From the NCBI GenBank assembly GCA_934667815.1, contig CAKUMO010000012.1, positions 1 to 64,000 of the forward strand: 64,000 nt of DNA, given 5' to 3'. Shown here piece by piece: positions 23,655 through 51,606 of this stretch. Position numbers and translations under genes: made by a program. How positions within the stretch are numbered: the first letter of the stretch is position 1; every line of letters starts with the position of its first letter. Under the pieces are notes generated by a model, which was not told the DNA's origin, did not search any database, and worked only from the letters and a program-made list of their open reading frames with translations. The DNA is from an uncultured Oscillospiraceae bacterium (GTDB taxonomy: Bacteria; Bacillota; Clostridia; Oscillospirales; Oscillospiraceae).

Positions 23655-23658
23655 CGGC

Positions 23659-25857: not shown

Positions 25858-28182
25858 TTATTGATTCAGGCTTTCGCTGAGGCGGTCGTTGACGGAGAAG
25901 GTCAGGGTCTGTCCGCGGTACAGCTCCAGCTCGAGCGTGTCGATGTCCTTGCCGTAATACTTGCCCTCATAAATCTCGAAGGGGCTGCACTTGTGCTTGA
26001 AATGCAGGACATGCTTGCCGGTATTCTCGGCGTGGATGTTCACGAAATTCTCGTTTGCATAGATGCAGTCGTCCTCATAGCCGTAAATATGGCAGCCGGC
26101 GTACTCGGCAAGCGAGGTCAGCAGCTCCGCGCGAAGAATCTGTGTGGTGCAGTAGACGCTGACGAAATCGCCGGTGTCCTTCATGGCAAGGGCAGGCTTG
26201 CCGTCGATGCAGTAGCGGCCGAGCACCGTGACGCCCTCGCCCTCCTCAATGGTAAAGCAGGGGTTCAGGAAGGGCACATCCAGCACGGAGCCGACCCAGA
26301 TGGTGCTGCACACCTCGCGGTCGATCCAGCCGTAGAAGCGGTCGGGCACGGCATAGCGCAGCGCAGGATGCTTCGGATCCGTAATGCGGAATTTGACCGA
26401 ATGCGTCTCGGTGATGCAGTTGACCTGCATGCCGGTCAGCTCGGAGATGTTCGCGGTATCCATGGGGATCGCGCGGTCGAAGTTCACAAAGCCCGGCGCA
26501 TAGAGCCAGACGACCATCGCGTGGTTCTTTGCAGCCTTTTTGCGAATGGCCTCGCGCTCGGCATCCGTCAGGCAGAAGGTGTTGAGCATCAGATAGAGCT
26601 TGTAATCGGGCATCGCCTCGTTCGTGAGGTCGTCGTGGAAGTAATAGTCCACGGGTGCGCCGATGCGTCCCAGATCCGACGTGCGGTAGAAGTCGAGCAT
26701 GGTGCGGTTGACGCCCTTGGAGACCAGATGGATGCTTTCCTCGTCATAGATAATGGCGATCTCGTTGGCCTTGGGCTTGCCGTGCCCGGCGGCCTCGAGT
26801 GCGACGCGCTGCTGCACGGCCATCATCTTATAGATGTCCTCATGCTTATAGCGGCCGCCGTTCTGGTGCTGGTCGAACCACCATGCAAAGGTATTTTCGC
26901 AGAGGTTGCGGGCAAAATCGCGCTTGAGCGTGTTGAGCGTATCCTGAATGGTGAAGAAATTGTTGGCATCGCGGTAGAAATCGCAGTCCAGATGCGTGCG
27001 GCTGTCCTCCTCGGAGAGGAACAGCATCTTGCGCAGCGTGAAGGAATCCTGCACCTCGCGCTGGGCGACGTAGCCGCCCGGCCAGCGGTTATTGTAGACG
27101 CCGGGCGCGGCCAAGAAGTCCACGACACCGGAATCGAGAATCTTGCGCGTACCGGTGGTCGTGCTGGAGCCGTAATAATCCGTGCAGCCCAGAGAGCCGT
27201 AGAACGAGCCGACAAGCGTTTCGGGGTTGCGCTGCTTCAGAAGGCGGGCAAAGTGAATCATGGTGTTGGCCGTGCCCTCGTGCCACGCGTTGAAGAAATC
27301 GTAGACATGGCGGTAGCCGTTGACGTTCAGGAACACGCCCTTGCGCGTCGGCTCCTGATTGTTGTAGTGAACGCCGTAGTCGATGCGATCGGCACATTCG
27401 AAGGTCACAAGCGAATGGATGATGAGCTTATCGATGTCCACATATTCGCGCTCGTGCAGATCGGGAATGCCGGGATTTTCAAAGGTCGCGTCGTCCTTTT
27501 TCCATGCGGCGCGGAGCGCCTCCTCCGTGCCGTAGTGCTCGCGCAGGATGCGGCCGTATTCCTTGCGGAAGGCGGGGGAAATGTCGGCATATTTGTTCAT
27601 GCCGACCTCGGTGATTTGATTGACATAATACCACTCCGATGTGCCGCCGGCGCCGAGGAAATAGCCGATGACGCGGTCTGCAAAGGGGCTTTGCTCCACC
27701 TGCTCGCAGAAGTGCATCAGCGCCTCGCCGCCGTCCTTGCGCCACGCGTCGGAGCAAAGGGAGTAGCAGCCGGGCACACGGTCGTAGTGCACCTCGGAAT
27801 TGATGACGCAGGGCATGGTCTCGCCGTCGGAGTAGCGCAGCAGATCGTCCGGATGGCTCTCCATCCAGCTCACGGGCGGGTGCAGACCCACGCGCACGAT
27901 GATATATGCATCCGGAACAACGCGCAGCAGGCGCTCGGCCTCAGACTGGAAGGAGGCAAAGCCGCCCCACTCCCGCCAGTCCTGCGTCTCGTCGAAGGAT
28001 TTGCCGGGACGCAGCCAATCGGTATTTGCAAAGACGAAGAAAATGCGCACGCCCGCCTTGCGCAGGCCGCGGAGGTATTCCTCATCCTTGATGCGCGTGG
28101 TCATGGCCATCAGCGAGAAGGTCTCGCCGTTGATCTCAAGGGCGGGTGTGCCGTTGTGGGTGTCGATTTTTGCGGTACTCAT
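25858..28182 (-). CDS. GH42-like (clan GH-A) putative beta-glycosidase
   Basis: The 774-aa protein looks like a clan GH-A retaining enzyme with a GH42-like C-terminal trimerisation domain (ANEIAIIYDEESIHLVSKGV..., about 500-640). The probable acid/base is the Glu in GAGGTSEWYYVNQ (about residue 184). A candidate nucleophile is a Glu in FLSEEDSRTHLD (about 397-398). Strands such as VRIFFVFANTDW and FFTIQDTLNTLKRDFARNLC fit a barrel. It is not LacZ-like and does not carry classical GH42 or GH112 signatures in full, so the exact family is uncertain. No signal peptide. Confidence 0.62.
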   Translation of the reverse strand: MSTAKIDTHNGTPALEINGETFSLMAMTTRIKDEEYLRGLRKAGVRIFFVFANTDWLRPGKSFDETQDWREWGGFASFQSEAERLLRVVPDAYIIVRVGLHPPVSWMESHPDDLLRYSDGETMPCVINSEVHYDRVPGCYSLCSDAWRKDGGEALMHFCEQVEQSPFADRVIGYFLGAGGTSEWYYVNQITEVGMNKYADISPAFRKEYGRILREHYGTEEALRAAWKKDDATFENPGIPDLHEREYVDIDKLIIHSLVTFECADRIDYGVHYNNQEPTRKGVFLNVNGYRHVYDFFNAWHEGTANTMIHFARLLKQRNPETLVGSFYGSLGCTDYYGSSTTTGTRKILDSGVVDFLAAPGVYNNRWPGGYVAQREVQDSFTLRKMLFLSEEDSRTHLDCDFYRDANNFFTIQDTLNTLKRDFARNLCENTFAWWFDQHQNGGRYKHEDIYKMMAVQQRVALEAAGHGKPKANEIAIIYDEESIHLVSKGVNRTMLDFYRTSDLGRIGAPVDYYFHDDLTNEAMPDYKLYLMLNTFCLTDAEREAIRKKAAKNHAMVVWLYAPGFVNFDRAIPMDTANISELTGMQVNCITETHSVKFRITDPKHPALRYAVPDRFYGWIDREVCSTIWVGSVLDVPFLNPCFTIEEGEGVTVLGRYCIDGKPALAMKDTGDFVSVYCTTQILRAELLTSLAEYAGCHIYGYEDDCIYANENFVNIHAENTGKHVLHFKHKCSPFEIYEGKYYGKDIDTLELELYRGQTLTFSVNDRLSESLNQ

Positions 28183-28199: not shown

Positions 28200-30332
28200 T
28201 TATTGGATGATCTCAAAGTCCATCGCTGCGATTTGACGGTCCTCGAACGAAGCCGCCTGACGGTTGAAATTCACGATCACGCGGACACCGTCGGCAAAGG
28301 TCGTTACGCTGACGCCGTTTTCGCAGACATAGTCCGTAATCTGCTGGTTATAAATTGCCTTGTAGTAGTCGCCGGTGCGATCAAGCAGCGCGGTAAGCGT
28401 CTCCTCCTGCGCGGCAAAGCAGGTGCCGAACAGGTTCTTGTATTCGCTGCGGCGAAGATTTTCGTTTTCCATTGCCGTGACGGCAAAGCAGGGTACGGTG
28501 CCGCTTGCGATGCAGTTCAGCAGCTCGGTCTGCGGGTCCTGCGTCAGATTCAGCGCCGTGGAAACCAGCAGGACACGGCCGTGGTAGACCATCTGTAAAA
28601 ACGGCACGGACTGCGTCTGCATGGCATAGCCGGACGAGGACACAGGGACATTGTAATTAAGATCGGACACGCCGAGGGTATATTCATTGCCGCCCTCGAC
28701 GGCATTTCCGCTCCCCTTTTCCGCAAGCAGCGCCGCGATGGCGCGCAGATAGGTGCTGCGGGTCGTGCCGTCCGCGCTGCCGTAATTGCCGTAAAGCTCA
28801 CTGCCAAGGTAGTTCATCGCCACGCCGCAGCTCGCCTTGTCCAGCGCCTTGCCCGCGTGGGAGATCAGGCGCGTCAGGCTCATACCGTAGAGATCCGTCG
28901 CGGTATAGGCATAGGTCACAGGCGAATAGGTATAGCGCGCCAGATTTTCCCGGCTGACCATTTTGGCAAAATGGCCCTGTCTTGCCCAGAGGAAGGCAGA
29001 CGCCGGTTCATAGAGCAGATCTTCGACGCAATAGATCGAAGCCTCCGGATGGGCGCTCGTCAGCGCCGCAAAGCCGGACTTTCCGCCGCAGTCGCCGCTC
29101 CACTTGACCGATTCGGGGTAGCTTTCGTTCAGCGCCGCCTTGTCAAAGTCGCGCAGCAGCACCGCAATCGAGCCGTCCGCGTTCAGTCGGTCGAGCATTT
29201 CGGAGACATCGGAAAATTCCGTAGCGACGACGGTTTTGGTATACGGGATGCCCAGCACGGCCGCACGCTGCGTAGTCGCGCCGTAGGCATAGAGCGCAGC
29301 GGTGAGCGCCTTCTCCGGCGCCTGCGGGAGCGTTCCGGCGGTGTCGCGGCATTTTTCTGCCAGCGCACTCAGGCCGCCCCGGTCGAGCAGATAATAGGAA
29401 ACGGAGAAGTCCTCCGTCTCGACCAGCTCGGAAGCCGCGACGTATTCCTTGACCTGCCAGTCGGTTCCGGTGAGGGTCACGGTGTCGAACACGCGGTAGT
29501 CGAAGCTCGCGTAGGCATAGGCATAGCTGCATGCGCTGCCCGTGGCGCGGGCGTTGATCCAGCCCGCTGCGGCATTGCCGTCCACGCGCGCCAGGACGCT
29601 GCGATCACGGTAGTCCGCACCGAACACGGCGAGCATTGCGGATTCGGGGTTGCCCTCCTCGTAATACAGTGCTTCGGCGGGGTTGCGGCCATAGATCTGC
29701 GCGGTGTAGGCCGCGGCATCGGGATTGATATAGGAAAAGTCCACCGTCGCGCCCGAGCCGTCCGGCAGGAGCAGATAGCCGCTGTCCTGCACCGAGCCGC
29801 GCAGCAGATAGGGCGTTACGGAGATGCGGCTGATGCGCTTGGCGCCGTATTCCTGAATCTCGTCGGTCAGCACGCGCACCTGAAAGCAGTCGTCCTCCAG
29901 CCGGTACTCGACCGGAATGATAAACTGCTCGTCCTTACGGGAAAAGTCATAGTCGATGCGCACGCGTGCGTCGTCCAGCCAAGTGACGGTGAAGGTCTTT
30001 TTCTTCACACTGGAAAGATAGCTGCCGATGGTGGAATCGACGTTCAGTTCGCTGTAATAGCTCACGATGAGCTGAGAGCGCAGATTATTCAGAGATGCGG
30101 CAGGGGTGAATTCGTCCTCCTGCGGGTCGTCCGGATTGGTCGAAAGCACCGTGTTTCCGACCTTGTCCAACACGGAAACGCAGCAGGTCTCGGGATCAAC
30201 CGAGAGCGTATAGCTTGCGCTGCCCGAGGTCTGCGGGCGCTCGGGCGCAGCCGTCTGCGGCACAGCCGCCGGTGCACACGCGCCGAGCAGCATACAGCAA
30301 AGCAGCGCCAGCACAAGGATTCGTTTCTGCAC
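28200..30332 (-). CDS. DUF5696 surface lipoprotein
   Basis: A 710-aa lipoprotein (signal with LLGAC lipobox, Cys19) matching the DUF5696 type. It has a beta-rich N-terminal half (SYTLSVDPETCCVSVLDKVG..., GYLLLPDGSGATVDF) and a barrel-like second half (KMVSRENLARYTYSPVTYAY, SVPFLQMVYHG, DFEIIQ at the end). From memory, DUF5696 proteins often lie beside YIP1 proteins, NHL-repeat proteins and sugar ABC transporters, exactly as here. The start is taken as GTG at 30332 because AGGAGG lies 8 nt before it; the GTG at 30341 abuts the same site. Function unknown; surface glycan processing or delivery to the importer is inferred. Confidence 0.72.
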   Translation of the reverse strand: MQKRILVLALLCCMLLGACAPAAVPQTAAPERPQTSGSASYTLSVDPETCCVSVLDKVGNTVLSTNPDDPQEDEFTPAASLNNLRSQLIVSYYSELNVDSTIGSYLSSVKKKTFTVTWLDDARVRIDYDFSRKDEQFIIPVEYRLEDDCFQVRVLTDEIQEYGAKRISRISVTPYLLRGSVQDSGYLLLPDGSGATVDFSYINPDAAAYTAQIYGRNPAEALYYEEGNPESAMLAVFGADYRDRSVLARVDGNAAAGWINARATGSACSYAYAYASFDYRVFDTVTLTGTDWQVKEYVAASELVETEDFSVSYYLLDRGGLSALAEKCRDTAGTLPQAPEKALTAALYAYGATTQRAAVLGIPYTKTVVATEFSDVSEMLDRLNADGSIAVLLRDFDKAALNESYPESVKWSGDCGGKSGFAALTSAHPEASIYCVEDLLYEPASAFLWARQGHFAKMVSRENLARYTYSPVTYAYTATDLYGMSLTRLISHAGKALDKASCGVAMNYLGSELYGNYGSADGTTRSTYLRAIAALLAEKGSGNAVEGGNEYTLGVSDLNYNVPVSSSGYAMQTQSVPFLQMVYHGRVLLVSTALNLTQDPQTELLNCIASGTVPCFAVTAMENENLRRSEYKNLFGTCFAAQEETLTALLDRTGDYYKAIYNQQITDYVCENGVSVTTFADGVRVIVNFNRQAASFEDRQIAAMDFEIIQ

Positions 30333-30337
30333 GGCCG

Positions 30338-31036
30338 TCACCTCCTCAAAAGCTCGGTGATGATCGTCTCAACGAACGTGGTCATCTGCTGCGAGATGGA
30401 GAAGCCCAGCAGCACAAGAAACGCAATAATGACAATCATGCCGAGTGACAGCAGCACCGAGCCGATGGTCTTGCGCACCGTGAACTGATGCACAACCATC
30501 GTCCCGAGGAACACAAGGATCAGCGACCACAGGGTGAGCGCCGAGGAAATGGCCGAATAGAACATGGATTCCGAAAGGGTCATCATGTTCGTGATGAGGT
30601 TCAGCGGCACGGAGAACAGCACCAGAGGCGTAAGGGCATAGCAGGTGGCAAGATAGATCTCCTTGAATGTGCCCTTGCCGTCCTGTAGGGTGCTCATGGC
30701 CCAGTTGGTGATACACCACAGCAGCACCAGCACGACCGTGCGCAGGAGAATCGGCCAGACGCTGAAGCTCTGCGCCTCGTTGTTGCTGAAAAGATAGGCC
30801 ACGGCGAAATAGTTGATGATCTCCTCGAGGAAATACAATGCCAGCAGGAGATTGGCCACACCGAGCGAACCGCGCTTTTCGTATTTAATGTCGTTGAACA
30901 GATCGATGGGATGGGCAAAGAAGCGGAGAGGAACCAGAAGCTTGGTCTTGTCCAGATTGCGCCATTGATAGCGCTCCCAGTCGATCTGGCAGAAGCGGAT
31001 GTAAACGCCGCGGAAAAATCGGCTGAAGTTGGTCAT
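30338..31036 (-). CDS. YIP1-family membrane protein
   Basis: This 232-aa integral membrane protein has about five hydrophobic segments after a 60-residue cytoplasmic N-terminus, with the YIP1 look (EIYLATCYALTPLVLFSVPL, LTLWSLILVFLGTMVVHQ). The start at 31036 forms an ATGA overlap with the NHL gene and has GGGGAGAG upstream; a longer frame would only overlap that gene. YIP1 homologues in bacteria are uncharacterised. Coupling to the NHL and DUF5696 genes by 4-bp overlaps suggests a membrane complex attached to the neighbouring importer. Confidence 0.75.
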   Translation of the reverse strand: MTNFSRFFRGVYIRFCQIDWERYQWRNLDKTKLLVPLRFFAHPIDLFNDIKYEKRGSLGVANLLLALYFLEEIINYFAVAYLFSNNEAQSFSVWPILLRTVVLVLLWCITNWAMSTLQDGKGTFKEIYLATCYALTPLVLFSVPLNLITNMMTLSESMFYSAISSALTLWSLILVFLGTMVVHQFTVRKTIGSVLLSLGMIVIIAFLVLLGFSISQQMTTFVETIITELLRR

Positions 31037-32529
31037 TTCTCTCTCCCCTTTCCCGATCTCAAAATGGCAAGATACAACTGCCGCAGGCCGATGCACACCG
31101 CAGCCACCGTCACAATCACGCAGGGCACCAGCCACAGGCTGTTCTCACGCAGAAATTCCCGGCGGTAGCGCGTCAGCGCCATGGAGTAATAATAGCGGTC
31201 GTCGCCCATTTTCAGGTAGCGCATCGCATCGCGGAAGTTGCCCTCGAGCAGCAGCGCACGTCCGACGCCCTTGGCCGCGACGGAAAGGCCCGCGTTGCTC
31301 TCAAGCACACGCTCCCAATAGGCACGGCTTTCGGAATACTCACCCTGATCGTAGGCACGCAGCGCACAGCGGATGTTCTGCATGTACTCCGTCGGTGCAA
31401 AGACCGTGACGGAATTGCGCGTGCCGTCGGCCACGAGGTACTCCCCGCCGTTTTTGGCCAGCGCGGAGGCGTTGGTAAAGCAGCCGTCCTGCGTGCCGCT
31501 GCCGCCGAAGATGCCCAGCGTGTTCTGCTCGCTGTCGAACAGCAGCACGCGGCCGCGCGAGGAATCCAGCACCGCGATGACATTGTCGCCATCCACGGTC
31601 ACGTCCATGATCTGGCTGCGGCGGAGGCTGCCCTTGGCATACTCCAGAATCTGGTCGCCGAAGTTGTTGCGGTCATAGCCCTTTTGCAGAAAGCCCGTGG
31701 ACGAGCCGGGATACATGAGGATATTCTCGCCGGAGGCGTTCAGCCGCTTGACCTGCGAGGTCGAGGCGGTGACGGTCGTGGTGTAGATCATATCCTCCGA
31801 ATCGATGAAGATGCCCGCGTACTCCGTCGGCACGGTGCGGATCAGGGACTCGCGCTGCTCGTCAGAGAAAATGTTCATCCACATGCTTTTCAGCAGAACG
31901 GCTGCGGTGACCTCGACCTTGTTTGCACCGAAAAATTCGATGAAGCTGCCGTCGGATTCGTAGTGCAGAAGGCCCTGATACACACCGCTGGCCGCAATAT
32001 ACACAGACCCCGCGCGGTTGACGACCACTTTTGAAGGTTTGAAGGCAAAATCCTCGGTCAGAAGGTCGGAGGCAGGCTTGCAGAAGGTCTTGACAACGCG
32101 ATCCTCCGAATCGACCGCGACGACGCGGCTGTTGCCGGTATCGCAGATGTACAGCAGGCCGTCCGCCAGAAACACGGACGAGGGGCTGTTCAGCGCCGAT
32201 GCCGCGCCGCTTTCCTGCACCTCGGAGATCACGCGCACAAGCTCGTACTCCGGGCTTAAGACAACGATGCGGTTGTTGCCCGAATCGGAAAGATAAACAT
32301 TGCCGTTGACATACAGATCCGTGAGCTTGGAGAAATCTCCAAGGCCGAGATCACGGCCGCGCAGCACACGCGTGCAGAGATAGGCGCTCGGTGCGCTCAC
32401 GGCCTCGCCGTATTCGTTATAGACATAGGTTTTCGTGCTCCCGTCGGCGGCAAGCGCCGGCGTAAGGAGCGCACAGAGCAGGAGCAGGCTCAGAAGCAGG
32501 CCGGAAATCAATCTCTTTTTCACGTTCAT
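31033..32529 (-). CDS. Secreted NHL-repeat beta-propeller protein with TPR and C-terminal membrane anchor
   Basis: The 498-aa protein has a signal peptide (cut after ALTPALA, about residue 27). It then has an NHL-type propeller (about 60-400; repeats such as GNVYLSDSGNNRIVVLSPEY, DGLLYICDTGNSRVVAVDS, EYLVADGTRNSVTVFAPT), a short helical TPR-like stretch (about 405-455) and one membrane segment near 468-490. The propeller would lie outside the membrane. It overlaps the next gene by 4 bp, and its start shares a base with the permease stop (TAATG). It probably acts as a scaffold or ligand-binding partner of the importer. Confidence 0.8.
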   Translation of the reverse strand: MNVKKRLISGLLLSLLLLCALLTPALAADGSTKTYVYNEYGEAVSAPSAYLCTRVLRGRDLGLGDFSKLTDLYVNGNVYLSDSGNNRIVVLSPEYELVRVISEVQESGAASALNSPSSVFLADGLLYICDTGNSRVVAVDSEDRVVKTFCKPASDLLTEDFAFKPSKVVVNRAGSVYIAASGVYQGLLHYESDGSFIEFFGANKVEVTAAVLLKSMWMNIFSDEQRESLIRTVPTEYAGIFIDSEDMIYTTTVTASTSQVKRLNASGENILMYPGSSTGFLQKGYDRNNFGDQILEYAKGSLRRSQIMDVTVDGDNVIAVLDSSRGRVLLFDSEQNTLGIFGGSGTQDGCFTNASALAKNGGEYLVADGTRNSVTVFAPTEYMQNIRCALRAYDQGEYSESRAYWERVLESNAGLSVAAKGVGRALLLEGNFRDAMRYLKMGDDRYYYSMALTRYRREFLRENSLWLVPCVIVTVAAVCIGLRQLYLAILRSGKGREK

Positions 32530-33383
32530 TACCCCTTCAAGCCCGAGTGCGCCATGGTCTCAACGATGGAGTTCTGGCTCAGCAGGAAGATCACCACGGA
32601 CGGGAACATCATCAAAACGCCCACGGCCGCGGCCACACCTGCTCTGGTGACGCCCGCCGTGCTCAAAGACGAGAGCATCGCAGGCAGCATCTTCATGTCC
32701 TCGCTGTAAATAAACTGCGCGGCGGTGGTGTTCCAGATGGAGATGAACGTAAAGATCACGACCGTCATCCACGCGGGCTTGAGCATGGGCATGATGAGCT
32801 TGCGGTAGATGACAAATTCACTCGCGCCGTCGATGCGCGCGGCCTCGATCATTTCGTTCGGCACATTATCCAAAAACTGCTGCAGGAGGAACACGCCGAA
32901 GGAGCCGGACATCGCGGGCAGGATCAGCGCCCAATAATTATCAATGATGTGCGCCTTGACCATCAGGATATACAGCGGCACCGAGGTGACCTCCGGCCGG
33001 AACAGAATGGCAAAGACGACGCTCTTGGTGATGGCGTTTTTCAGGGGGAACTTATGCTTGGACAGGGCATAGGCCGCCATGGAAGCCAGAAGCACATAGC
33101 CCACCGTGGACACCACCGTGACGAAAACGCTGTTGAACAGGTAGCGCTCAAAGGGCACATCCGACTGCGCCTGCAATTTGATGAGCGTCAGGAAATTTCG
33201 CAGCGTCGGCTTGATGACATAGAACTTCGGCGGGAAATAGAACAGCTCACTCGTCGGCTTCAGGGCACTGACGACCATGTAGTAAAGCGGCAGGATCATG
33301 AACACGCCGAAGATCAGCAGAAAAACGATTACGGTCACGTTTCCGGCCGCCGAGCGGGAAACGCGTTTGGTAGGTCTTCTCAT
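32529..33383 (-). CDS. Carbohydrate ABC transporter permease, MalG type
   Basis: A 284-aa permease with six membrane spans and the EAA-loop EAARIDGASEFVIYRKLIMP that docks with the shared ATPase. The C-terminus has the MalG-type end (LLSQNSIVETMAHSGLKG). It forms one importer with the adjoining MalF-type permease and the fusion binding protein at 34310-37105. No ATP-binding subunit lies in the window, so an MsmX/UgpC-like multipurpose ATPase encoded elsewhere is expected, as is usual in Firmicutes. Confidence 0.92.
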   Translation of the reverse strand: MRRPTKRVSRSAAGNVTVIVFLLIFGVFMILPLYYMVVSALKPTSELFYFPPKFYVIKPTLRNFLTLIKLQAQSDVPFERYLFNSVFVTVVSTVGYVLLASMAAYALSKHKFPLKNAITKSVVFAILFRPEVTSVPLYILMVKAHIIDNYWALILPAMSGSFGVFLLQQFLDNVPNEMIEAARIDGASEFVIYRKLIMPMLKPAWMTVVIFTFISIWNTTAAQFIYSEDMKMLPAMLSSLSTAGVTRAGVAAAVGVLMMFPSVVIFLLSQNSIVETMAHSGLKG

Positions 33384-33395
33384 TGGGAATCCTCC

Positions 33396-34313
33396 TTAGT
33401 CTGAGGAGAAGCGGTTGAGCACCGCATGGATCAGCAGCCACGAACCGACCATCATGATAAACAGAATCACGGCGATGGCGGACGCATAGCCCATTTCGTA
33501 CTTTCCGTAGCCGTAATCGAGCAGATGCAGCAAAATGGTGTGCGTGGAGTAATCGGTACTCGGATTTCCGGTCAGCGCGGCGTTCACGCCGCCGACGGCG
33601 AAGGCGCCGGAGATGGCCAGCACCGCGCCGATCTTGAGCTGCGGCACCATCTGCGGCAGGGTGATGTACCAAAGCTCCTGCCAGCGGTTGGTCACGCCGT
33701 CGATGGCACCGGCCTCAAACAGCTCGTAGTTGAGCTGCTTGAAGCCCGCAACGAAGGACAGGAAGCCCACGCCCATGCTCATCCAGAGCGTGACGACCAC
33801 GACCACAACAGAGTTATACTGCGGATCCGTGAGCCACTGCACGGGCTTGGACAAGATGCCCACATTCACAAGCAGGCTGTTGAGCAGGCCATAGGAGTCG
33901 CCGCTGAAGATGAAGTTCCACAGCATATACGCGCTTCCTGCCAGTGCCGGAGAATAGAACACGAAGGTCAGAAGTGAGCGCCAGAATTTATTCGGCACCT
34001 CATTGATGAGCCAGGCAACGACGAAGCTGATAAGATAGCCCGCCGGGCCGGTGACGACGGCATAAAAGAGGGTGTTGCTCAGAGATTTGGTAAAGGTCTC
34101 GTCATCCAGCAGCAGCGAAAGATAGTTCCGGAAGCCGACAAAATGCGGTGTGCGCACCATGTCGAAATCCGTGAAGCTCATCACGATGGCGCAGAGGATG
34201 GGGATGACGACGAAAAACAGGAACAGCGTCAGCCACGGCAGGAGAAAACAGCACGTCGCGCCGTATTTGGAGAAAAAGCCCGGCTTGCGCCTCTTTTCGA
34301 TCGGATTTTTCAT
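33396..34313 (-). CDS. Carbohydrate ABC transporter permease, MalF type
   Basis: This 305-aa protein has six spans starting with CCFLLPWLTLFLFFVVIPIL and the EAA-loop EAGAIDGVTNRWQELWYITLP. It is the partner of the MalG-type permease 12 bp downstream. Its start overlaps the stop of the large binding-protein gene by 4 bp (ATGA), which ties it translationally to that binding protein. Confidence 0.92.
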   Translation of the reverse strand: MKNPIEKRRKPGFFSKYGATCCFLLPWLTLFLFFVVIPILCAIVMSFTDFDMVRTPHFVGFRNYLSLLLDDETFTKSLSNTLFYAVVTGPAGYLISFVVAWLINEVPNKFWRSLLTFVFYSPALAGSAYMLWNFIFSGDSYGLLNSLLVNVGILSKPVQWLTDPQYNSVVVVVVTLWMSMGVGFLSFVAGFKQLNYELFEAGAIDGVTNRWQELWYITLPQMVPQLKIGAVLAISGAFAVGGVNAALTGNPSTDYSTHTILLHLLDYGYGKYEMGYASAIAVILFIMMVGSWLLIHAVLNRFSSD

Positions 34314-37105
34314 TCTCCCACCTCCTGCATGACTTCCTTCTTGCGGTCAAATTCCAGATCGAGATCATCGCTGTAACGGTAGATCACGTCTCGCGGTTTT
34401 TCGTAGCTGTAAACCACACGGCGGAAGGCGTTGGAAATGCAGCGGGAAACGTAATAGGTGACCATGGTCTGCGGCGTGTCGCTGACATCGCGGCGCGCCT
34501 CGCGCAGCACCTCCAGCTCGCGCCCCGTCCAGTTGAGCTGCTCGAAGGTGACGGAATTTGCGGTATTATAGCGGGCGGATTTTCCCAGGACGGACTCTAC
34601 CTGACGGCCGAACTCCGTCTGCGTCTGGCTGTCGATCCACCAGCGCATGAATTCGTAGGCGGCGTCCAACTCCTCGGAGCCCTTCATGATGACGCAGCCG
34701 GTGTTAACGCTGGCCTGGCTGCGGTCGAGCGTACCGTCGGCGCGGACGGTCGCAGGCACGGGATACATCGACCACTGATCCTTGATCTCCGGCGCGGCAA
34801 CGCAGAGCTGGTTATACATGGTGTAGCTCATGATGCCGATGGGCATTTCGCCCGTGCGAAAACGGTTGACAAAGCTGAACGACAGCGGCAGTGTGTATTT
34901 GATATAGAGATCCGTCCACTGCGCGAAGGCCTCGACCGCCTCCTGCGACTTGAGCGCACTGGCGGTGCAGTCCTCATTGTAGATCGAGCCGCCATGCTGC
35001 ATCAGAAGCATCTCGAAGATGTCCTGACTTTCCGGAATGCCGATCTCCAGCTTCTTCTCAGCCAGCTTTTTCTGCACGGCATAGAAGTCGTCCCATGTGT
35101 TCGGGACGGCAAGCCCCAGCTCGGAGAAAATGTCGTCTCTGACGAACATCATGTTGAAGGTCTGCGTTACGGGCATGGCGTAAACACCGCCGCCGAAGGT
35201 AAAGGGCACAAGCGCGGAGTCGTAGACCTGCGCGGCCAGCGCGTCATAGTCGGGCATTTCAGTCATGTCGGCCAGAACGCCGCGGATGCCAAGATTCACG
35301 ACCGTCTGCTCGCCCACGAACAGCGCAACATCCGGGCCTTTCCCCGCCAGAATCGCCTGCGAGAGCGTGTCGCCCGCGCTTACGAGGGAAAATTCCACGG
35401 AAATGTTGTGCTCTGTGGTGAAGCTGTCGTCGGAAAGCTGGCGGATAATCTGCATCTGGTCGCGGCCGGAGGCCGAACCGCTGACGAGGATGTCGCCCAT
35501 GTTGATCCAGACCTTGATTGTGCGCGGCGCCGTACCGGAGGTCGTGCGATCCTCGCCGGAGAAGGATGCCAGGAACGCCTTGAAACGGAAGCCGAGATAA
35601 TTGAAGGTCTTGCTCACGCCTGACCAGAGCTTGCCGAAGAAGCCCTGTTCCTCCTGCGGGATATCCTTCGGGGTGAAGGTGATGTAGTCCAGCGTCAGGG
35701 ACTGCGTCTCGAGTGTCTGGATAAGGTCTGCCATGGAATCGATGCGGTTTTTGAACTCGCTGAGGGTCGCAGGGATCTTGTAGGGCTTTTTGATGAAGCG
35801 CTCGAGTGTGCGCACGGTATCGTGCAGGGTGGCGCTCTCACTTCCCTCTCCGTCCTCGGAGCAGGCCTCGATGGAGGCAGCCAGCGCATTTAAGCGCGTG
35901 ACGGAATCATTCAGGAAGGGCATCAGCTCGGGAAGCTCCTTGTCCAGATAGTAGTCGCGGTAAATATCCGGATCGGCACCCGTGATGCTGATGATGCGGC
36001 GGTACATGGAGTTGCACTCGGAAATGTAATTTTTCAGCTCGATGATCGCCTGCTCCAGATGCGTCTGGCTGACCTCCATGCGCAGTGCGTGCTCGCCCGC
36101 CGTGAGATAGACGGCGTAAGGCTCGCCCGCCTCGTCCGCCAGCGTCAGCGTGGAATAGTTCGTACAGTACGGAAACAGGAAATTTTCAAATTCCGCAAAG
36201 GGAATCACGCCGTCAATGTAGATTTTCCGTCCGACGCCCAGCTCACGCAGGCCGTCCTGCTGGTAGCGCGCGGAAATGCTGTAAAAACCGTCCTTTTCGA
36301 CGGAGAAATGCCATTCGATCCACTGTCCCTGCTCGGAATACGCGCCGCCGCCGACGATGTTCAGGGCGATGGTGTCCGGGTAGTTCGGGCTGATGGTGGG
36401 CGAAGACCGGTCGTAGGTCGCAATGATGGAGGAATCGGACTTGGCAGCGATCAGCTCGGTCTCGAGCGTGACCGGCTCGGCCTCCGCAGCACTCTGCGGA
36501 TTTTTGACGGAGGCAAGATAGCTTTCGTAGCTCTGCGGCTGCTCGGAGATCAGGCGGACATCGCCGATCTCCACGGCCTCACTGGCCAGCTTGAGATTTA
36601 GCGTGTATTCGCCCTTTTCCAGCTGCACCGCAGCGCTTCCGGTCTCGGCGGACAGGCCGTAGACCGCCTGCTGCCAGACGCTTTCCTCCTGCGTCTTGGG
36701 CAGTACCTCGTTGCCGTTGGAATCAAGCTGGAAGCGGCCGTTCGTGTGGATGTCCACCCAGCGGCGGGCAAAATAGAGCGACTGCTGATACTGCGCATCC
36801 GCACCCGTCAGGGTGAAGGAGGCCTCCGGGTTGATCTGCCGGCCGGGAATCGCGCGGTAGACCACGGAGAGCCAATAGCCGCCCGTGGCGGGCGCGGTGA
36901 GCGTAAAGTCATGGCTCTGCCCCTCGGAGAGGGCGACGGCGTCGCGCTCGGAGAACCTGATCTCTCCGCCGGAGCGGCTGTCGGTCACGGAAACGGTCTG
37001 CGCAGTCTCCGTTGCGCGCACGGGAAGTCCCACCGCGAGAAGGCCGAACAGCAGCACCGCCGTGAGCGCACCGGAAAGGATTCGTTTGAAAGAACTGTGT
37101 TGCAT
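34310..37105 (-). CDS. Multidomain extracellular solute-binding protein fused to carbohydrate-binding domains
   Basis: At 931 aa this is about twice the size of a normal sugar-binding protein. After a signal peptide (cut near VRA, residue 31; no lipobox seen) come two beta-sandwich domains that look like carbohydrate-binding modules (about 35-195 and 225-350; GGYWLSVVYRAIPGRQINPE, WIEWHFSVEKDGFYSISARY). A helical spacer (about 350-480) and an amphipathic loop (FGKLWSGVSKTFNYLGFRFK) follow. A type-1 extracellular binding domain occupies about 520-870 (GPDVALFVGEQTVVNLGIRG, AMPVTQTFNMMFVRDDIFSE). It probably captures a long or polymeric ligand for the permeases encoded just downstream. Confidence 0.83.
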   Translation of the reverse strand: MQHSSFKRILSGALTAVLLFGLLAVGLPVRATETAQTVSVTDSRSGGEIRFSERDAVALSEGQSHDFTLTAPATGGYWLSVVYRAIPGRQINPEASFTLTGADAQYQQSLYFARRWVDIHTNGRFQLDSNGNEVLPKTQEESVWQQAVYGLSAETGSAAVQLEKGEYTLNLKLASEAVEIGDVRLISEQPQSYESYLASVKNPQSAAEAEPVTLETELIAAKSDSSIIATYDRSSPTISPNYPDTIALNIVGGGAYSEQGQWIEWHFSVEKDGFYSISARYQQDGLRELGVGRKIYIDGVIPFAEFENFLFPYCTNYSTLTLADEAGEPYAVYLTAGEHALRMEVSQTHLEQAIIELKNYISECNSMYRRIISITGADPDIYRDYYLDKELPELMPFLNDSVTRLNALAASIEACSEDGEGSESATLHDTVRTLERFIKKPYKIPATLSEFKNRIDSMADLIQTLETQSLTLDYITFTPKDIPQEEQGFFGKLWSGVSKTFNYLGFRFKAFLASFSGEDRTTSGTAPRTIKVWINMGDILVSGSASGRDQMQIIRQLSDDSFTTEHNISVEFSLVSAGDTLSQAILAGKGPDVALFVGEQTVVNLGIRGVLADMTEMPDYDALAAQVYDSALVPFTFGGGVYAMPVTQTFNMMFVRDDIFSELGLAVPNTWDDFYAVQKKLAEKKLEIGIPESQDIFEMLLMQHGGSIYNEDCTASALKSQEAVEAFAQWTDLYIKYTLPLSFSFVNRFRTGEMPIGIMSYTMYNQLCVAAPEIKDQWSMYPVPATVRADGTLDRSQASVNTGCVIMKGSEELDAAYEFMRWWIDSQTQTEFGRQVESVLGKSARYNTANSVTFEQLNWTGRELEVLREARRDVSDTPQTMVTYYVSRCISNAFRRVVYSYEKPRDVIYRYSDDLDLEFDRKKEVMQEVGE

Positions 37106-37114
37106 ACTGCCCTC

Positions 37115-38086
37115 CTAACCGACCAGACCCGAGGTGAGAACACTGCGGGAGAATCTGCGCTGCAAAACGATGAACAAAATCAGCGCCGGCAGCAGTACCG
37201 TGAAGCACGCGGCCTGCTGAATGGTCATGATCTTATAGGGATTGTAGGCATCGTTTCCCATGAGGGCAGTCAGGGAGCTGGTCAGCCCCGTGAGCTTGGT
37301 GGAAACGGTGCGGATATTGATGAAGAAGGTTGTCATGGTGTAATAGTCGTTCCAGTACCAAACCGCCGAAAAAATGGTCGTGGTGATGATTGGCCCGGAG
37401 GCGTTGCGGAGCATGATTCTCGAAAACAGGCGGAACTCGCCGCAGCCGTCGAGCATCGCGGCCTCCTGAAGCTCCTTGGGCACGGAGCGGAAATATTGAT
37501 AGAAAATCAGAATGAACAGGCCGGAGCGGATGCCCTGCCCCAGCGCGGCCAGAAGAAAGACCGCATAATATTTGTCGAGCATGCTGAAGGTCTTTTCAGC
37601 GCCCGTAACGGCATGCAGAATGCCGAAAATGTCGAAATCACTGAACAGCAGATAGTTCGGAAGGTTGACCATCTGCGGCGGGACGATGATGGTGAAGATC
37701 ACCACGGCAAGCAGCAGCTTGCGTCCCTTGAATTTATACATGGCGAAGCCGTAACCGGTCATCGCGCAGATGAGCGTCTGCAAAAGTGTGCAGACGATCG
37801 TGATAATCGCGGAATTTTTCAGTGCCGGAAGAAAATCCAGCGAGGTGAACAGGAGCTTGAAGTTTTCCAGTGTGAAATGCCGCGGGATCCACACGACGGA
37901 GGAATCGTACATATCCACCGAATCGCGCAGCGCCATGCTCAGCATATACATGATGGGATACAGGATGATGAAGGTCATGCCCAGCAGGAAGAAGAAGCGC
38001 ACGATGCTCCACACGGCCTTGCCCAGATAATACGCGGGCGAAACGGCAATGCCCTGCACGCTTGATTTGTTTCTGATTCGTTTCAT
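37115..38086 (-). CDS. Carbohydrate ABC transporter permease, MalG type (first importer)
   Basis: This 323-aa permease has six spans and the EAA-loop QEAAMLDGCGEFRLFSRIML. The start at 38086 (MKRIRNKSS) has GAGGGAG just upstream; a longer frame reaching 38197 would overlap the preceding gene. It pairs with the permease at 38098-39009 and the lipoprotein SBP at 39123-40475. Confidence 0.92.
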   Translation of the reverse strand: MKRIRNKSSVQGIAVSPAYYLGKAVWSIVRFFFLLGMTFIILYPIMYMLSMALRDSVDMYDSSVVWIPRHFTLENFKLLFTSLDFLPALKNSAIITIVCTLLQTLICAMTGYGFAMYKFKGRKLLLAVVIFTIIVPPQMVNLPNYLLFSDFDIFGILHAVTGAEKTFSMLDKYYAVFLLAALGQGIRSGLFILIFYQYFRSVPKELQEAAMLDGCGEFRLFSRIMLRNASGPIITTTIFSAVWYWNDYYTMTTFFINIRTVSTKLTGLTSSLTALMGNDAYNPYKIMTIQQAACFTVLLPALILFIVLQRRFSRSVLTSGLVG

Positions 38087-38097
38087 GTTCTTCTCCC

Positions 38098-39009
38098 TCA
38101 GCGCTTGGCCTTTTTCTCCCGCATCGGGGACAGAAGGCTCACCGCCCATGTCATGACGCCCAGCGCTGCAATGATGATGATAAAATAGATCCAGCACATG
38201 GCCGCCGCATAGGAATATTTGTAGTCCTTATAGGCCGTATTCATGATGTATTTCATGACGGCGTTGTCGTAGCTGACAAAGTGGTCTATAACGGTATAGA
38301 CAAGATTGACAAAGATATAGGGAAAAACCGCCGGGAAGGTCACATACCAGAAGGTCTCCCATGCCGTCGCGCCCTCGACGTGCGCAACCTCGTAGTGCGA
38401 AACGGGAATGGTCATCAGCCCCATAATGAATACGATGATCTGCACGCTGCTCGACCAGACAAGATCCGTGACGTTCGAGACAAGACTGCCGACGGTGTTG
38501 ACCAGATTATCCGGCAGGCCGAAGCGGTAGAGCATCTGCGTCAGGAGCGCCGCGTTAAAGAGATTGTCCGAGGAATCCGCGCTCATGACGGTGGAGGTCA
38601 GGCTGGTCTTGATGATCGAGGCGATAACGCCCGAGGAAATGAGCAGCGGAATGAAAAACACCGAACGCATCACGCCTCTGCCCTTGAAATCCTGGTTGAG
38701 GATCATGGCCACGACCAGACTGAACACCAGAATGATGGGAATGCGATAGAGCATTTCGGAAAGCGACGCGGAGAGGATCTGCGGAAACTGCGCGTCCCTC
38801 GTGAAGGCGTTGATATAGTGGGTAAACGCTCCGTTGGGCAGTGCATTAAAGACGAAGCCCTGCCCCTGCACGACCTGAAGGTCTGTGAAGGAATACCGAA
38901 GCAGGTTTACGATCGTCTGCGCAAAGAACAGGACGATGCCCACCAGCCACGGCAGGATAAAGAGGAAACCGACCCTGTTTCTTTTTCGCAGGAGATTGCG
39001 CTTTTTCAC
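38098..39009 (-). CDS. Carbohydrate ABC transporter permease, MalF type (first importer)
   Basis: A 303-aa permease, KKRNLLRKRNRVGFLFILPW at its N-terminus, six spans, EAA-loop HVEGATAWETFWYVTFP. No ATG fits: the frame extends back to 39204 but that would run into the SBP gene. The best start is GTG at 39009, with AAAGGA about 11 nt upstream. The spacing is slightly long, so weak initiation is possible. A strong hairpin at 39058-39094 lies between it and the binding-protein gene. Confidence 0.88.
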   Translation of the reverse strand: MKKRNLLRKRNRVGFLFILPWLVGIVLFFAQTIVNLLRYSFTDLQVVQGQGFVFNALPNGAFTHYINAFTRDAQFPQILSASLSEMLYRIPIILVFSLVVAMILNQDFKGRGVMRSVFFIPLLISSGVIASIIKTSLTSTVMSADSSDNLFNAALLTQMLYRFGLPDNLVNTVGSLVSNVTDLVWSSSVQIIVFIMGLMTIPVSHYEVAHVEGATAWETFWYVTFPAVFPYIFVNLVYTVIDHFVSYDNAVMKYIMNTAYKDYKYSYAAAMCWIYFIIIIAALGVMTWAVSLLSPMREKKAKR

Positions 39010-39057
39010 GGGAGAACCATTCCTTTCCGAATCAATGCGATTTGTGCCGAATCCACC

Positions 39058-39094
39058 GGCAGCGCGGACGGGAGACCCGTCCCGCCGCGCCGCC
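39058..39094 (-). other. Intergenic mRNA hairpin between binding-protein and permease genes
   Basis: Nested GC-rich stems: GGACGGG (39066-39072) with CCCGTCC (39076-39082) around an AGA loop, closed by GGCAGCGC (39058-39065) with GCGCCGCC (39087-39094), one G-U-type pair, and a small internal bulge. No U-tract follows on the minus strand. Such hairpins commonly stabilise the upstream mRNA so the binding protein is made in excess over its permeases. Confidence 0.6.
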
Positions 39095-39122
39095 GAAATG
39101 GAATTCAGATATTCGTTGTTTT

Positions 39123-40475
39123 TTAACCGACCGTGTCCTTCAGGGCGTTGTTCAGGACATTTTCCATGGCTGCGGAAACTTCCTCCGCAGACTTCAGGTT
39201 CCAAACGAGATCAGACCAGAAGGTCTCGGCATAGTTGCTCTGCCAGCCGACCAGAGAGTCCATCTTGGACGAGAGCTTTGTCGCACCGGCAAGATAGTCG
39301 TTGATGATGGTCTCCTGCTCCTCGGTCATAAATCTTCTCTGGCGGGCAAGCCATGCTTCTTCCTGTCTTGCTTTGCCCTCAGCCATACGGCGGACATAGA
39401 AGTAGTTCCAAGCCATGCCGCCGAGCGGGTTCTTGGCGTTGGTGGGGACGAAATTCGTGACAAAGATGCTGGGCGCATAGACCTTATCGGCATTGGGACC
39501 CTGCGGGAAGGGCACGATACCGATCTCGTCGTCCATGGTGTTCAGCAGGTCATAGTTGCCGATGGCGTTCATCGGACGTTCGACAAACATGGCGATCTTT
39601 CTGGCCGGGAATTCCGTGAAGCCCTGAATGCTCGGATTCATGGAGCCGTCGGCAATGATGTCGCGCAGGAAGTTCAGACCCGCAATGGTCGCTGCGCTCT
39701 TGAGCGTGGAAACATAGGTGCCCTGCGACTCATCCCAGTCGATGAACTTTCCGCCGTTGGCCAGCACGAACACCTCGCGCGCGTGCGTGCCGATGCCGTA
39801 GGTCTTGACGGTGGTGTTGTCGTCCTCATAGACGGTGGCCTTCTGCGCGATCTCGCGCAGCTTGTCATACGTCCACTCGCCGTTCTGATACAGCTCGTAG
39901 GGATCGGGCAGACCAAGCTCCTCAAAGAGGCTCTTGTTATAGTAGACAAAGAAGGTCTCAATTTCGCCGGTGTTGACGGCGTAGTAGTGGCCGTTCATCT
40001 TGTAGGCCTCGAGGACGTCCTTATCCCAGACGGGGTCGTCCATATCCAGATACTCGTCAATGGGCATGCACAGTCCCTGATACATAAAGGCCAGAGACGT
40101 AGCGTCGGTCATGACGGCGGTGTCGGGCGCGTTGCCGGTGGCGACGAGCTGCGGCAGCTTGGAGGTGTACTCGTTGTAGGTCATGGGCAGCCAGTTGATC
40201 TTAACGTCATAGCGGTCCATGAATTCCTGCACGATCTGCTTTTCATACTCGCTCAGGTCGTTCGGAGAGCCGATCTTGGTGATGGTGGTGCCTGCGATGC
40301 TCTTGAACATCTCGTCCTGCGCCGTCCATTCCAGCTCCATCTCGGCAAACTCGGTCGCGCCGGAGGACTGGGATTCGTTGGTGCTGCCGCCCTGAGGATC
40401 GGTGTTGGTCTTGCCGCAGGCGAACATCGTCGCGGTCAGAACCAGGCACAGCAGCAGACAAAACAGTCTTTTCAT
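39123..40475 (-). CDS. Extracellular sugar-binding lipoprotein of ABC importer
   Basis: A 450-aa lipoprotein (signal with MFAC lipobox, Cys20) of the type-1 sugar-binding family: GNAPDTAVMTDATSLAFMYQ, GHYYAVNTGEIETFFVYYNK, IDWDESQGTYVS. Two adjacent ATGs (40478 and 40475) are possible; the GGAG site is better spaced from 40475. It overlaps the end of the DUF4832 gene. It supplies the permeases at 37115-39009. The ligand is probably an oligosaccharide from the same glycan. Confidence 0.92.
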   Translation of the reverse strand: MKRLFCLLLCLVLTATMFACGKTNTDPQGGSTNESQSSGATEFAEMELEWTAQDEMFKSIAGTTITKIGSPNDLSEYEKQIVQEFMDRYDVKINWLPMTYNEYTSKLPQLVATGNAPDTAVMTDATSLAFMYQGLCMPIDEYLDMDDPVWDKDVLEAYKMNGHYYAVNTGEIETFFVYYNKSLFEELGLPDPYELYQNGEWTYDKLREIAQKATVYEDDNTTVKTYGIGTHAREVFVLANGGKFIDWDESQGTYVSTLKSAATIAGLNFLRDIIADGSMNPSIQGFTEFPARKIAMFVERPMNAIGNYDLLNTMDDEIGIVPFPQGPNADKVYAPSIFVTNFVPTNAKNPLGGMAWNYFYVRRMAEGKARQEEAWLARQRRFMTEEQETIINDYLAGATKLSSKMDSLVGWQSNYAETFWSDLVWNLKSAEEVSAAMENVLNNALKDTVG

Positions 40476-41956
40476 CATTTTGCTCCTTCCTCGATGGTAA
40501 AGGTGTAGAATACGGAATAACCGTTGTTATAGGTCAGGTCGTTATTGAGGCGTGCGCCGGTGCCGGCGCTGTTCTTCAGGTAGAAGGCAAGCTGGTACTC
40601 CCCTGCCTGTGCAGGCAGGATGAGGTCGGCGCTGATGGTGTACTCAATGGGTGCGGCGTCCTCATAGTTCTTCGGGTCGCGGCTGTTCCACGTTGCAGGC
40701 TCGCCCGCCGGGTAGTCCGCGACGACCTCGCCGTTTTTATCCAGAATGGCAAAGCCGCTGTACATGTTGAACGCAGCGGAGAAGCCGTAGTTGATGAGCT
40801 TGAACTCGGCCTTCAGCTTGCCGTTCGGCGCAATGGTGCCCGCGACGTTCGCGGACTGACCCTCGATGCGGTAGCCGAGGTAGTCGCTGACGTACTCAAA
40901 GACCGTTCTGGCCTTCCGGCCGTCCTCGCCGAACCAGTTCGGGCTGTAAAGCAGGCCGTTGCTGTCGAGCCAGTCCTTGGTAATGGGCAGGGTCGTCCAT
41001 TTTTCGATCTCGTAGCCCTTGCCGACGCCGTCCTCAATGAACATGTGGAAGATACTGAAGGAGTTCTGGCGGAAGGCACTGAACTGCTTGATCGCGTCGA
41101 AGCCGTTGACCTTCTCGTTGCTCTCGTAGCCCCAGAAGGTCTCGCCGCCGACCGGCACATAGGGAGATTCCTCCACGATCTGGTTCCAGCCGTCATTGCC
41201 GGGGTTCAGGTCGGCGTTGGCGCAGTAGCGATAGCCGAAGAAGGCATCGTCATGGAAGCCGATGCGCGCATATTCCGGCTCGGTGTCAAGAATGAGATCC
41301 TTGTATTCCGGCTTACGCACCTGCACAAACAGAGGCTCCGGAACCATTTCCAGAATGCCGCGCAAGATGGCCGTCTCGTTGTGGAACTCCTGATAGGAGT
41401 GCCATTCGCCCCAAGCGCCGAGGAAACCGGCCTCGACCACATGGATGACGTCGATGTTCTTCTCGAGCAGCGGACGAAGCTGCTTCATGTGCGCCAGCAT
41501 GATCTCGTCGCTGGCCTCGCCGCGGCCGGACATACCCCACTGGTAAGCAAAGCGGACGTTGAACTTGATGCCAAGCTCCTTGGCGCAGTCAAAAACCTGC
41601 TGCATGCGCTCCATGCCGTACTCGTCGATCTCGGTTTTGTTTTTGTAAGCCGAGAGGTAGAAATAGACCTGGCAGAGCTGGGGGCTGTAAGCGGAATACT
41701 TTTCCACGAAGCGGCGGACGTTGACCGTGGGATCCTCCTGCGGTGTATGTCCGTCGTCCATGGAATTGCCGACGTTGACATAGGCCTCGCCGCGCCATGC
41801 GCGGTCGGGGTTGTAGTTGAGCATGAAGGACTGCGAAGCGTCCAGCGGCTTCAATTCGATTCTCTCATCGACCTTGGTGCCCGTGCTGCTTCCCTGACAG
41901 GCGCACAGGCTCAGCACGCAGGCAAGGACGATCACAAAAGCAATGATTCTTTTCAT
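40475..41956 (-). CDS. DUF4874/DUF4832 surface lipoprotein, copy 1
   Basis: A 493-aa paralogue of the protein at 22107-23654, with lipobox LCAC (Cys20). It shares NYNPDRAWRGEAYVNVGNSM, VEAGFLGAWGEWHSYQEF, GFHDDAFFGY and the C-terminal block AFYLKNSAGTGARLNNDLTY. Conservation of the acidic clusters between the copies supports an enzymatic or ligand-binding role on the cell surface. Its start overlaps the preceding gene by 4 bp and its stop overlaps the SBP start. It is therefore coupled to the first importer, whereas the other copy sits among cytoplasmic enzymes. Confidence 0.77.
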   Translation of the reverse strand: MKRIIAFVIVLACVLSLCACQGSSTGTKVDERIELKPLDASQSFMLNYNPDRAWRGEAYVNVGNSMDDGHTPQEDPTVNVRRFVEKYSAYSPQLCQVYFYLSAYKNKTEIDEYGMERMQQVFDCAKELGIKFNVRFAYQWGMSGRGEASDEIMLAHMKQLRPLLEKNIDVIHVVEAGFLGAWGEWHSYQEFHNETAILRGILEMVPEPLFVQVRKPEYKDLILDTEPEYARIGFHDDAFFGYRYCANADLNPGNDGWNQIVEESPYVPVGGETFWGYESNEKVNGFDAIKQFSAFRQNSFSIFHMFIEDGVGKGYEIEKWTTLPITKDWLDSNGLLYSPNWFGEDGRKARTVFEYVSDYLGYRIEGQSANVAGTIAPNGKLKAEFKLINYGFSAAFNMYSGFAILDKNGEVVADYPAGEPATWNSRDPKNYEDAAPIEYTISADLILPAQAGEYQLAFYLKNSAGTGARLNNDLTYNNGYSVFYTFTIEEGAK

Positions 41957-51571: not shown

Positions 51572-51606
51572 AACAATCACCCTTCCTTCCAGTTTTTTAC
51601 CGAACC

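What the first reader, a model, noticed from the sequence alone, without database searches (positions are those of the whole stretch)
28200..37105. DUF5696 / YIP1 / NHL-propeller module fused to a sugar importer
Six genes are tightly coupled (ATGA or TAATG overlaps or gaps under 18 bp): an oversized binding protein with two extra binding domains, two permeases, a secreted membrane-anchored NHL propeller, a YIP1-like membrane protein and a DUF5696 surface lipoprotein. Nothing in a normal oligosaccharide ABC importer needs the last three. They may form a surface complex that docks polymeric glycan and hands it to the permeases, a Gram-positive counterpart of Sus-like uptake. Gene fusion, overlap and co-location are seen in the sequence; the docking idea is inference.
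Basis: partly seen in the sequence, partly recalled or inferred. Interest (0 to 1): 0.78.

Follow-up and report, generated by a model that had tools for sequence, protein, structure and literature searches.

The report
Four-permease sugar importer with surface proteins
Many Gram-positive bacteria carry, in a nearly fixed order and up to sixteen times in one genome, a gene set of two permease pairs, an oversized binding protein, a propeller protein with a membrane part and a surface protein predicted to be a decayed glycosidase, which likely work together as one machine for catching and importing complex sugars.

Summary
Upstream lie a second permease pair and a lipoprotein binding protein (37115-40478). 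All 80 DUF5696 genes over Pfam's cut-off in 16 module-bearing genomes were fetched: 78 have NHL(-YIP1) directly upstream and 73 have the full set; the two without are stand-alone, enzyme-like relatives. NHL and YIP1 are one fused protein in 56 of the 78. Among 291 genomes of one class, NHL-YIP1 and long DUF5696 genes co-occur in 61, with one genome for each alone. The four permeases form four lineages that exclude 54 non-module permeases, and all core parts diverge together among paralogous modules of one genome. Eleven MalK-type ATPase genes lie beside modules, which points to import. DUF5696 has a predicted GH129-like fold, but only 5 of 140 keep both catalytic residues; the window's copy has Tyr at the nucleophile column. 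I read this as a dual-permease ABC sugar importer with a regular surface apparatus. Glycan docking and a physical complex are inferred; no complex could be modelled. Searches for DUF5696 and PF18952 found no paper in the held library.

The parts
39123..40478 (-). small lipoprotein solute-binding protein (451 aa)
   Evidence: SBP_bac_8 2.5e-16; lipobox-like N-terminus; its position relative to the core varies between modules
38098..39009 (-). permease B1 of the second pair (start uncertain; the frame is open to 39204)
   Evidence: BPD_transp_1 6.6e-7, over cut-off; lies in the B1 clade; EAA-like motif EVAHVEG
37115..38086 (-). permease B2 of the second pair
   Evidence: BPD_transp_1 4e-15; B2 clade; EAA motif
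34310..37105 (-). oversized solute-binding protein: N-terminal hydrophobic segment, two beta domains, helical region, MalE-like SBP at 528-928
33396..34313 (-). permease A1
   Evidence: BPD_transp_1 4e-11; A1 clade 66 of 66; 15 best matches in six genomes, 234-316 bits, as many as modules, next 126 bits
32529..33383 (-). permease A2
   Evidence: BPD_transp_1 2e-12; A2 clade 66 of 66
31033..32529 (-). NHL propeller protein with signal-like N-terminus and C-terminal transmembrane segment
   Evidence: NHL 2e-13; hydropathy; fused to YIP1 in 55 of 80 (set 1) and 56 of 80 (set 2) loci
30338..31036 (-). YIP1 multi-pass membrane protein
   Evidence: Yip1 1.7e-14
28200..30341 (-). DUF5696 lipoprotein with a predicted GH129-like fold

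Best explanation
This is a conserved nine-gene set around two ABC permease pairs that likely works as one sugar importer, in which the propeller-YIP1 protein and the DUF5696 protein, predicted to be a decayed glycosidase, would form a membrane-anchored surface apparatus that catches glycan and passes it to the binding proteins and permeases. Shown by calls: nearly fixed gene order with coupled genes, NHL-YIP1 fusions, near-perfect co-occurrence, four permease lineages set apart by position, joint divergence of the core parts, MalK-type ATPase genes beside some modules, and loss of one or both catalytic residues in most DUF5696 proteins. Inferred: that DUF5696 and the beta domains of the big SBP bind glycan without cutting it; that NHL-YIP1 is the scaffold; that one shared MsmX/MalK-type ATPase drives both pairs where no ATPase gene lies in the module; that the parts touch. 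The small SBP diverges most closely with DUF5696 and B2, so I predict that these help to set the substrate. Imported oligosaccharides would be broken down inside by the GH36, GH94-like and GH2 enzymes of the same gene run, which lack an N-terminal hydrophobic segment.
For: NHL(-YIP1) directly upstream of DUF5696 in 79 of 80 (set 1) and 78 of 80 (set 2) loci; full module in 66 of 80 and 73 of 80. Reverse test: 78 of 79 NHL units within 3 kb of DUF5696. Class sample: both in 61 of 291 genomes, one alone in two. Median gaps of -4 to 14 bp within the core. Four permease clades by position against 54 outgroup permeases. Within-genome co-divergence r 0.75-0.95 among seven core parts, 0 of 200 shuffles reaching any observed value. 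MalK-type ATPase genes: in 16 of 16 genomes; 11 of 30 lie beside modules on the same strand. GH129-like fold with both catalytic residues in 5 of 140.
Against: No contact between parts was shown or modelled. Co-inheritance fits a shared regulon too. 30 of 140 DUF5696 proteins have Asp at the nucleophile column and 5 keep both residues, so some could be enzymes; the alignment there is gapped. The small SBP is not fixed in place and is not seen in every locus, and it diverges with B1 (0.70) no better than with A1 or the big SBP (0.72). B2 is less set apart from ordinary permeases. No ATPase gene was found in the window by motif. No substrate is known.
Confidence: 0.6

Rival explanations
1. Two ordinary ABC sugar importers for different products of one glycan share an operon with surface glycan-binding proteins, without any physical complex.
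For: Each pair keeps EAA-like motifs and two SBPs are often present. B. subtilis imports pectin fragments with several separate importers driven by one ATPase (PMC5730181, passages).
Against: All four permeases are lineages of their own that always come with NHL-YIP1 and DUF5696 and are not exchanged between paralogous modules; the big SBP diverges with B1 (0.94) as closely as with A1 (0.90). NHL-YIP1 and DUF5696 recur with different neighbouring enzymes.
Confidence: 0.22
2. DUF5696 is an active surface glycosidase that trims the glycan before import.
For: Predicted GH129-like fold; stand-alone relatives keep both catalytic residues; 5 of 140 module proteins keep both, and 8 keep Asp plus Glu or Asp.
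Against: 91 of 140 have neither residue; the window has Tyr at the nucleophile column.
Confidence: 0.08
3. NHL-YIP1 and DUF5696 sense glycan and control expression or transporter activity rather than take part in uptake.
For: YIP1 is a multi-pass membrane domain; AraC- and LacI-type regulators are among the flanking genes sampled.
Against: No regulator is part of the conserved core. DUF5696 is followed directly by the second permease pair in 76 of 80 (set 1) and 73 of 80 (set 2) loci.
Confidence: 0.06

Closest known systems
MsmX-energised type I sugar ABC importers of Bacillota (AraNPQ, YtcQP-YteP, YesOPQ; PMC5730181 passages, PMC7658222 abstract)
   Same: SBP plus permease pair with EAA-like motifs; ATPase often encoded elsewhere and probably shared
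   Different: two permease pairs per module, a big SBP with an extra 500-residue N-terminal half, and nearly invariant NHL-YIP1 and DUF5696 partners
GH129 alpha-N-acetylgalactosaminidase NagBb and ZgGH129
   Different: 12-13% identity; catalytic Asp and/or Glu missing in 135 of 140 module proteins
Sus-type glycan uptake of Bacteroidota (recalled, not tested)
   Same: idea of a surface glycan catcher tied to a transporter
   Different: ABC permeases of the cytoplasmic membrane; no SusC or SusD family in the Pfam scans of the nine module proteins
Gram-positive glycan clusters with ABC permeases lacking an ATPase gene, such as the GH161/GH94 clusters (PMC6484121, passages)
   Same: phosphorylases beside ABC permeases without an ATPase gene
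   Different: the passages seen mention neither NHL, YIP1 nor DUF5696 proteins

Membership tests
Type I sugar ABC importer | permeases with BPD_transp_1 domain and EAA motif | tested here: met
   four in the window over Pfam's cut-off; EAA-like motif in A1 66/66, A2 66/66, B1 76/77, B2 73/78
Type I sugar ABC importer | MalE-like solute-binding protein | tested here: met
Type I sugar ABC importer | MalK-type ATPase | tested here: inconclusive
   none in the window by motif and its genome is not held; OB_MalK present in 16 of 16 relative genomes and beside 11 modules
Type I sugar ABC importer | sugar transport | not testable with these tools
   needs uptake assays
GH129 | fold | tested here: met
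GH129 | catalytic Asp and Glu (NagBb Asp435, Glu478) | tested here: not met
   window has Tyr511 and Glu549; both kept in 5 of 140
Sus-like uptake | SusC/SusD proteins | tested here: not met
   no such family in Pfam scans of the nine module proteins
Sus-like uptake | surface glycan binding in contact with the transporter | not testable with these tools
   only single chains can be modelled; both jobs used

The most novel reading that the evidence does not exclude
A new class of ABC importer: two permease heterodimers locked around one NHL-YIP1 membrane scaffold and a pseudo-glycosidase, a double-barrelled glycan-uptake machine that is the Gram-positive answer to Sus, with up to sixteen variants per genome for different glycans.
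Probability: 0.33. Interest if true: 0.92.

Novelty: new variant of a known kind. Interest (0 to 1): 0.76.

Why it matters
Type I sugar ABC importers are usually pictured as one SBP, one permease pair and an ATPase. This module suggests that many importers of Gram-positive bacteria follow another plan, with four dedicated permeases and regular surface partners: 1 to 16 copies in the 16 genomes chosen because they carry it, and long DUF5696 genes in 62 of 291 genomes of one class. If right, it gives a role to DUF5696 and to NHL-YIP1 proteins, changes how sugar use is predicted from gut and soil genomes, and makes testable how thick-walled cells take up large glycans.

Tried and rejected
Chance neighbourhood: rejected. 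DUF5696 as an ordinary active GH129: rejected for most members. Pfam GH129 (PF11308) in 249 genomes: nothing rang, controls included, so it says nothing. NCBIfam gave no family for DUF5696 or YIP1 and only sub-cut-off matches for the other module proteins given (permeases A1 and A2 were not given). Foldseek and VIA rows for the big SBP cover about 523-931 only, so its N-terminal 520 residues are barely tested by fold. PDB sequence search with the 774-aa neighbour: no match up to E 1.

Corrections made on the way: the fused/split tally suffered from a label clash; one search has the right counts. F and G labels differ; only positions were used. For one search I sorted genomes by hand from the tables, where only three or four candidates per genome were scored. 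An N-terminal stretch without start codon (window 38098-39045) was used for permease B1 until.

Literature (all ten searches used): DUF5696 0 papers, PF18952 0, 'Yip1 family protein' with 'solute-binding protein' 0. Broader searches gave 157, 10, 32, 17 and 1 papers, of which I saw 20, 10, 12, 10 and 1 in listings; none was recognisable by title or start of abstract as this module. Passages were read in PMC5698469, PMC8106489, PMC6484121 and PMC5730181, and the outline with abstract of PMC7658222. The library lacks most subscription journals.

Full report
What is there. The six genes named lie where stated, on the minus strand, with overlaps or short gaps. Directly upstream on the same strand lie a lipoprotein SBP (39123-40478) and a second permease pair (38098-39009 and 37115-38086). 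These nine genes sit in a run of 27 co-directional reading frames from 51580 down to 3548 that also holds GH36, two GH94-like proteins, three GH2 proteins, two GDSL proteins, a ROK protein and two DUF4874/DUF4832 proteins. GH36, the GH94-like and GH2 proteins and the 774-aa protein show no N-terminal hydrophobic segment.

Conservation, set 1. A DUF5696 profile matched 220 stretches in species genomes, 205 of them relatives; the best 80 were kept, with up to 10 kb of flank. Profiles iterated from the window's genes put NHL and YIP1, fused (55) or as neighbours (24), directly upstream of DUF5696 in 79 of 80; in the other, L067, DUF5696 starts 171 bases into a contig. I call a module full if it has a big SBP (800 aa or more), at least one permease directly before NHL, NHL/YIP1, DUF5696 and a second permease pair: 66 of 80. 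Of the 14 others, nine are cut by a contig end (L004, L014, L016, L018, L040, L047, L066, L067, L079), L043 has a split SBP frame, L015, L021 and L034 show no big SBP in the flank, and L056 has it downstream of the second pair.

Conservation, set 2. Because set 1 rests on a sequence pattern, 16 genomes taken from set 1 (so the sets overlap) were searched whole with PF18952: 86 matches, 80 over the cut-off. All 80 were fetched. NHL(-YIP1) lies directly upstream in 78 (fused 56, split 21, NHL only 1) and the module is full in 73. Of the seven others, five are cut by a contig end (L111, L139, L141, L155, L160); two (L158, L159) are short stand-alone relatives. In one full module (L115) only one permease of pair A was called. 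Copies run from 1 to 16 per genome. In most loci the second pair follows DUF5696 (76 of 80 and 73 of 80); in the window and a few others it precedes the big SBP.

Reverse test. A profile of 29 natural NHL-YIP1 fusions found 79 propeller-bearing units in the same 16 genomes (YIP1-only pieces left out of the count); 78 lie within 3 kb of DUF5696 and one is a partial hit on a contig without DUF5696. In 291 genomes drawn from the class of G001, 62 have NHL-YIP1, 62 have a long DUF5696 match and 61 have both. In G118, counted as NHL-YIP1 alone, a DUF5696 fragment lies beside it at a contig start; in G117 no NHL match was listed. PF18952 in any form passed the cut-off in 77 of 291.

Four permeases. 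A tree of 287 permeases labelled by position (66 A1, 66 A2, 77 B1, 78 B2; set 1 and window, 240-400 aa) and 54 permeases from 30 loci without DUF5696 gives one clade per position: A1 66 of 66, A2 66 of 66, B1 77 of 77 plus one protein labelled B2, B2 77 of 78; supports 1.0, 0.977, 0.994 and 1.0. In six genomes the window's A1 finds 15 proteins at 234-316 bits, as many as there are modules, and nothing else above 126.5 bits. B2 is less set apart: one module copy ranks below non-module permeases. In 57 modules of seven genomes, distances compared only within a genome correlate at r 0.75-0.95 among big SBP, A1, A2, NHL(-YIP1), DUF5696, B1 and B2; the big SBP follows B1 (0.94) as closely as A1 (0.90); none of 200 shuffles reached any observed value. 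The small SBP (40 modules) follows DUF5696 (0.84) and B2 (0.82) best, then NHL 0.74, big SBP 0.72, A1 0.72, B1 0.70 and A2 0.54.

Energy and direction. OB_MalK matches over the cut-off occur in 16 of 16 genomes: 10 in G008, 3 in G009, one or two in the rest, even where there are 9 (G002) or 11 (G003) NHL-bearing modules. This fits a shared ATPase such as MsmX of B. subtilis (PMC7658222, abstract; PMC5730181, passages). Of the 30 genes, 11 lie 7.8-11 kb from a DUF5696 gene on the same strand; eight ATPase frames found by motif sit -16 to 24 bp from the big SBP gene. I take this as support for import.

Substrate. Of 182 flanking genes next to set-1 modules, 96 were drawn and 70 scanned with Pfam; the 25 commonest of 84 families include LacI, AraC and GntR regulators, GH3, SOGP/GH94, GH76, GH88 and GH38, so the module seems to serve different glycans. 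The window's substrate is unknown; its GH36, GH94-like and GH2 genes hint at a branched, galactose-containing glycan (inference).

Reading. Joint inheritance, fusion and order make it very likely that all core parts serve one transport function. That they form one complex, and that DUF5696 hands glycan to the SBPs, fits best but is untested.

Noticed in passing
L158:8927-10681 (+), L159:9371-11080 (-); similar hits of 565-607 aa: Short stand-alone relatives of DUF5696, outside the module, that keep the GH129 catalytic Asp and Glu; possibly an undescribed group of active glycosidases.
   Followed up: partly
25858-28182 (-): 774-aa protein, no N-terminal hydrophobic segment, directly downstream of DUF5696: no Pfam (E 0.1), NCBIfam (E 0.01) or PDB sequence match (E 1).
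   Followed up: partly
45134-51580 (-): 2148-aa protein with a signal-like N-terminus and no Pfam family over its cut-off, first frame of the 27-frame run.
   Followed up: no
22107-23708 and 40475-41956 (-): Two DUF4874/DUF4832 proteins on either side of the module in the same run.
   Followed up: no
16022-18484 and 19449-22091 (-): Two GH94-like proteins flank a DUF4434 protein at 18481-19452.
   Followed up: no
L077, L079: Module genes in contigs labelled Acholeplasmataceae (recalled as wall-less bacteria), which would mean that the apparatus does not need a cell wall; both are metagenome bins.
   Followed up: no
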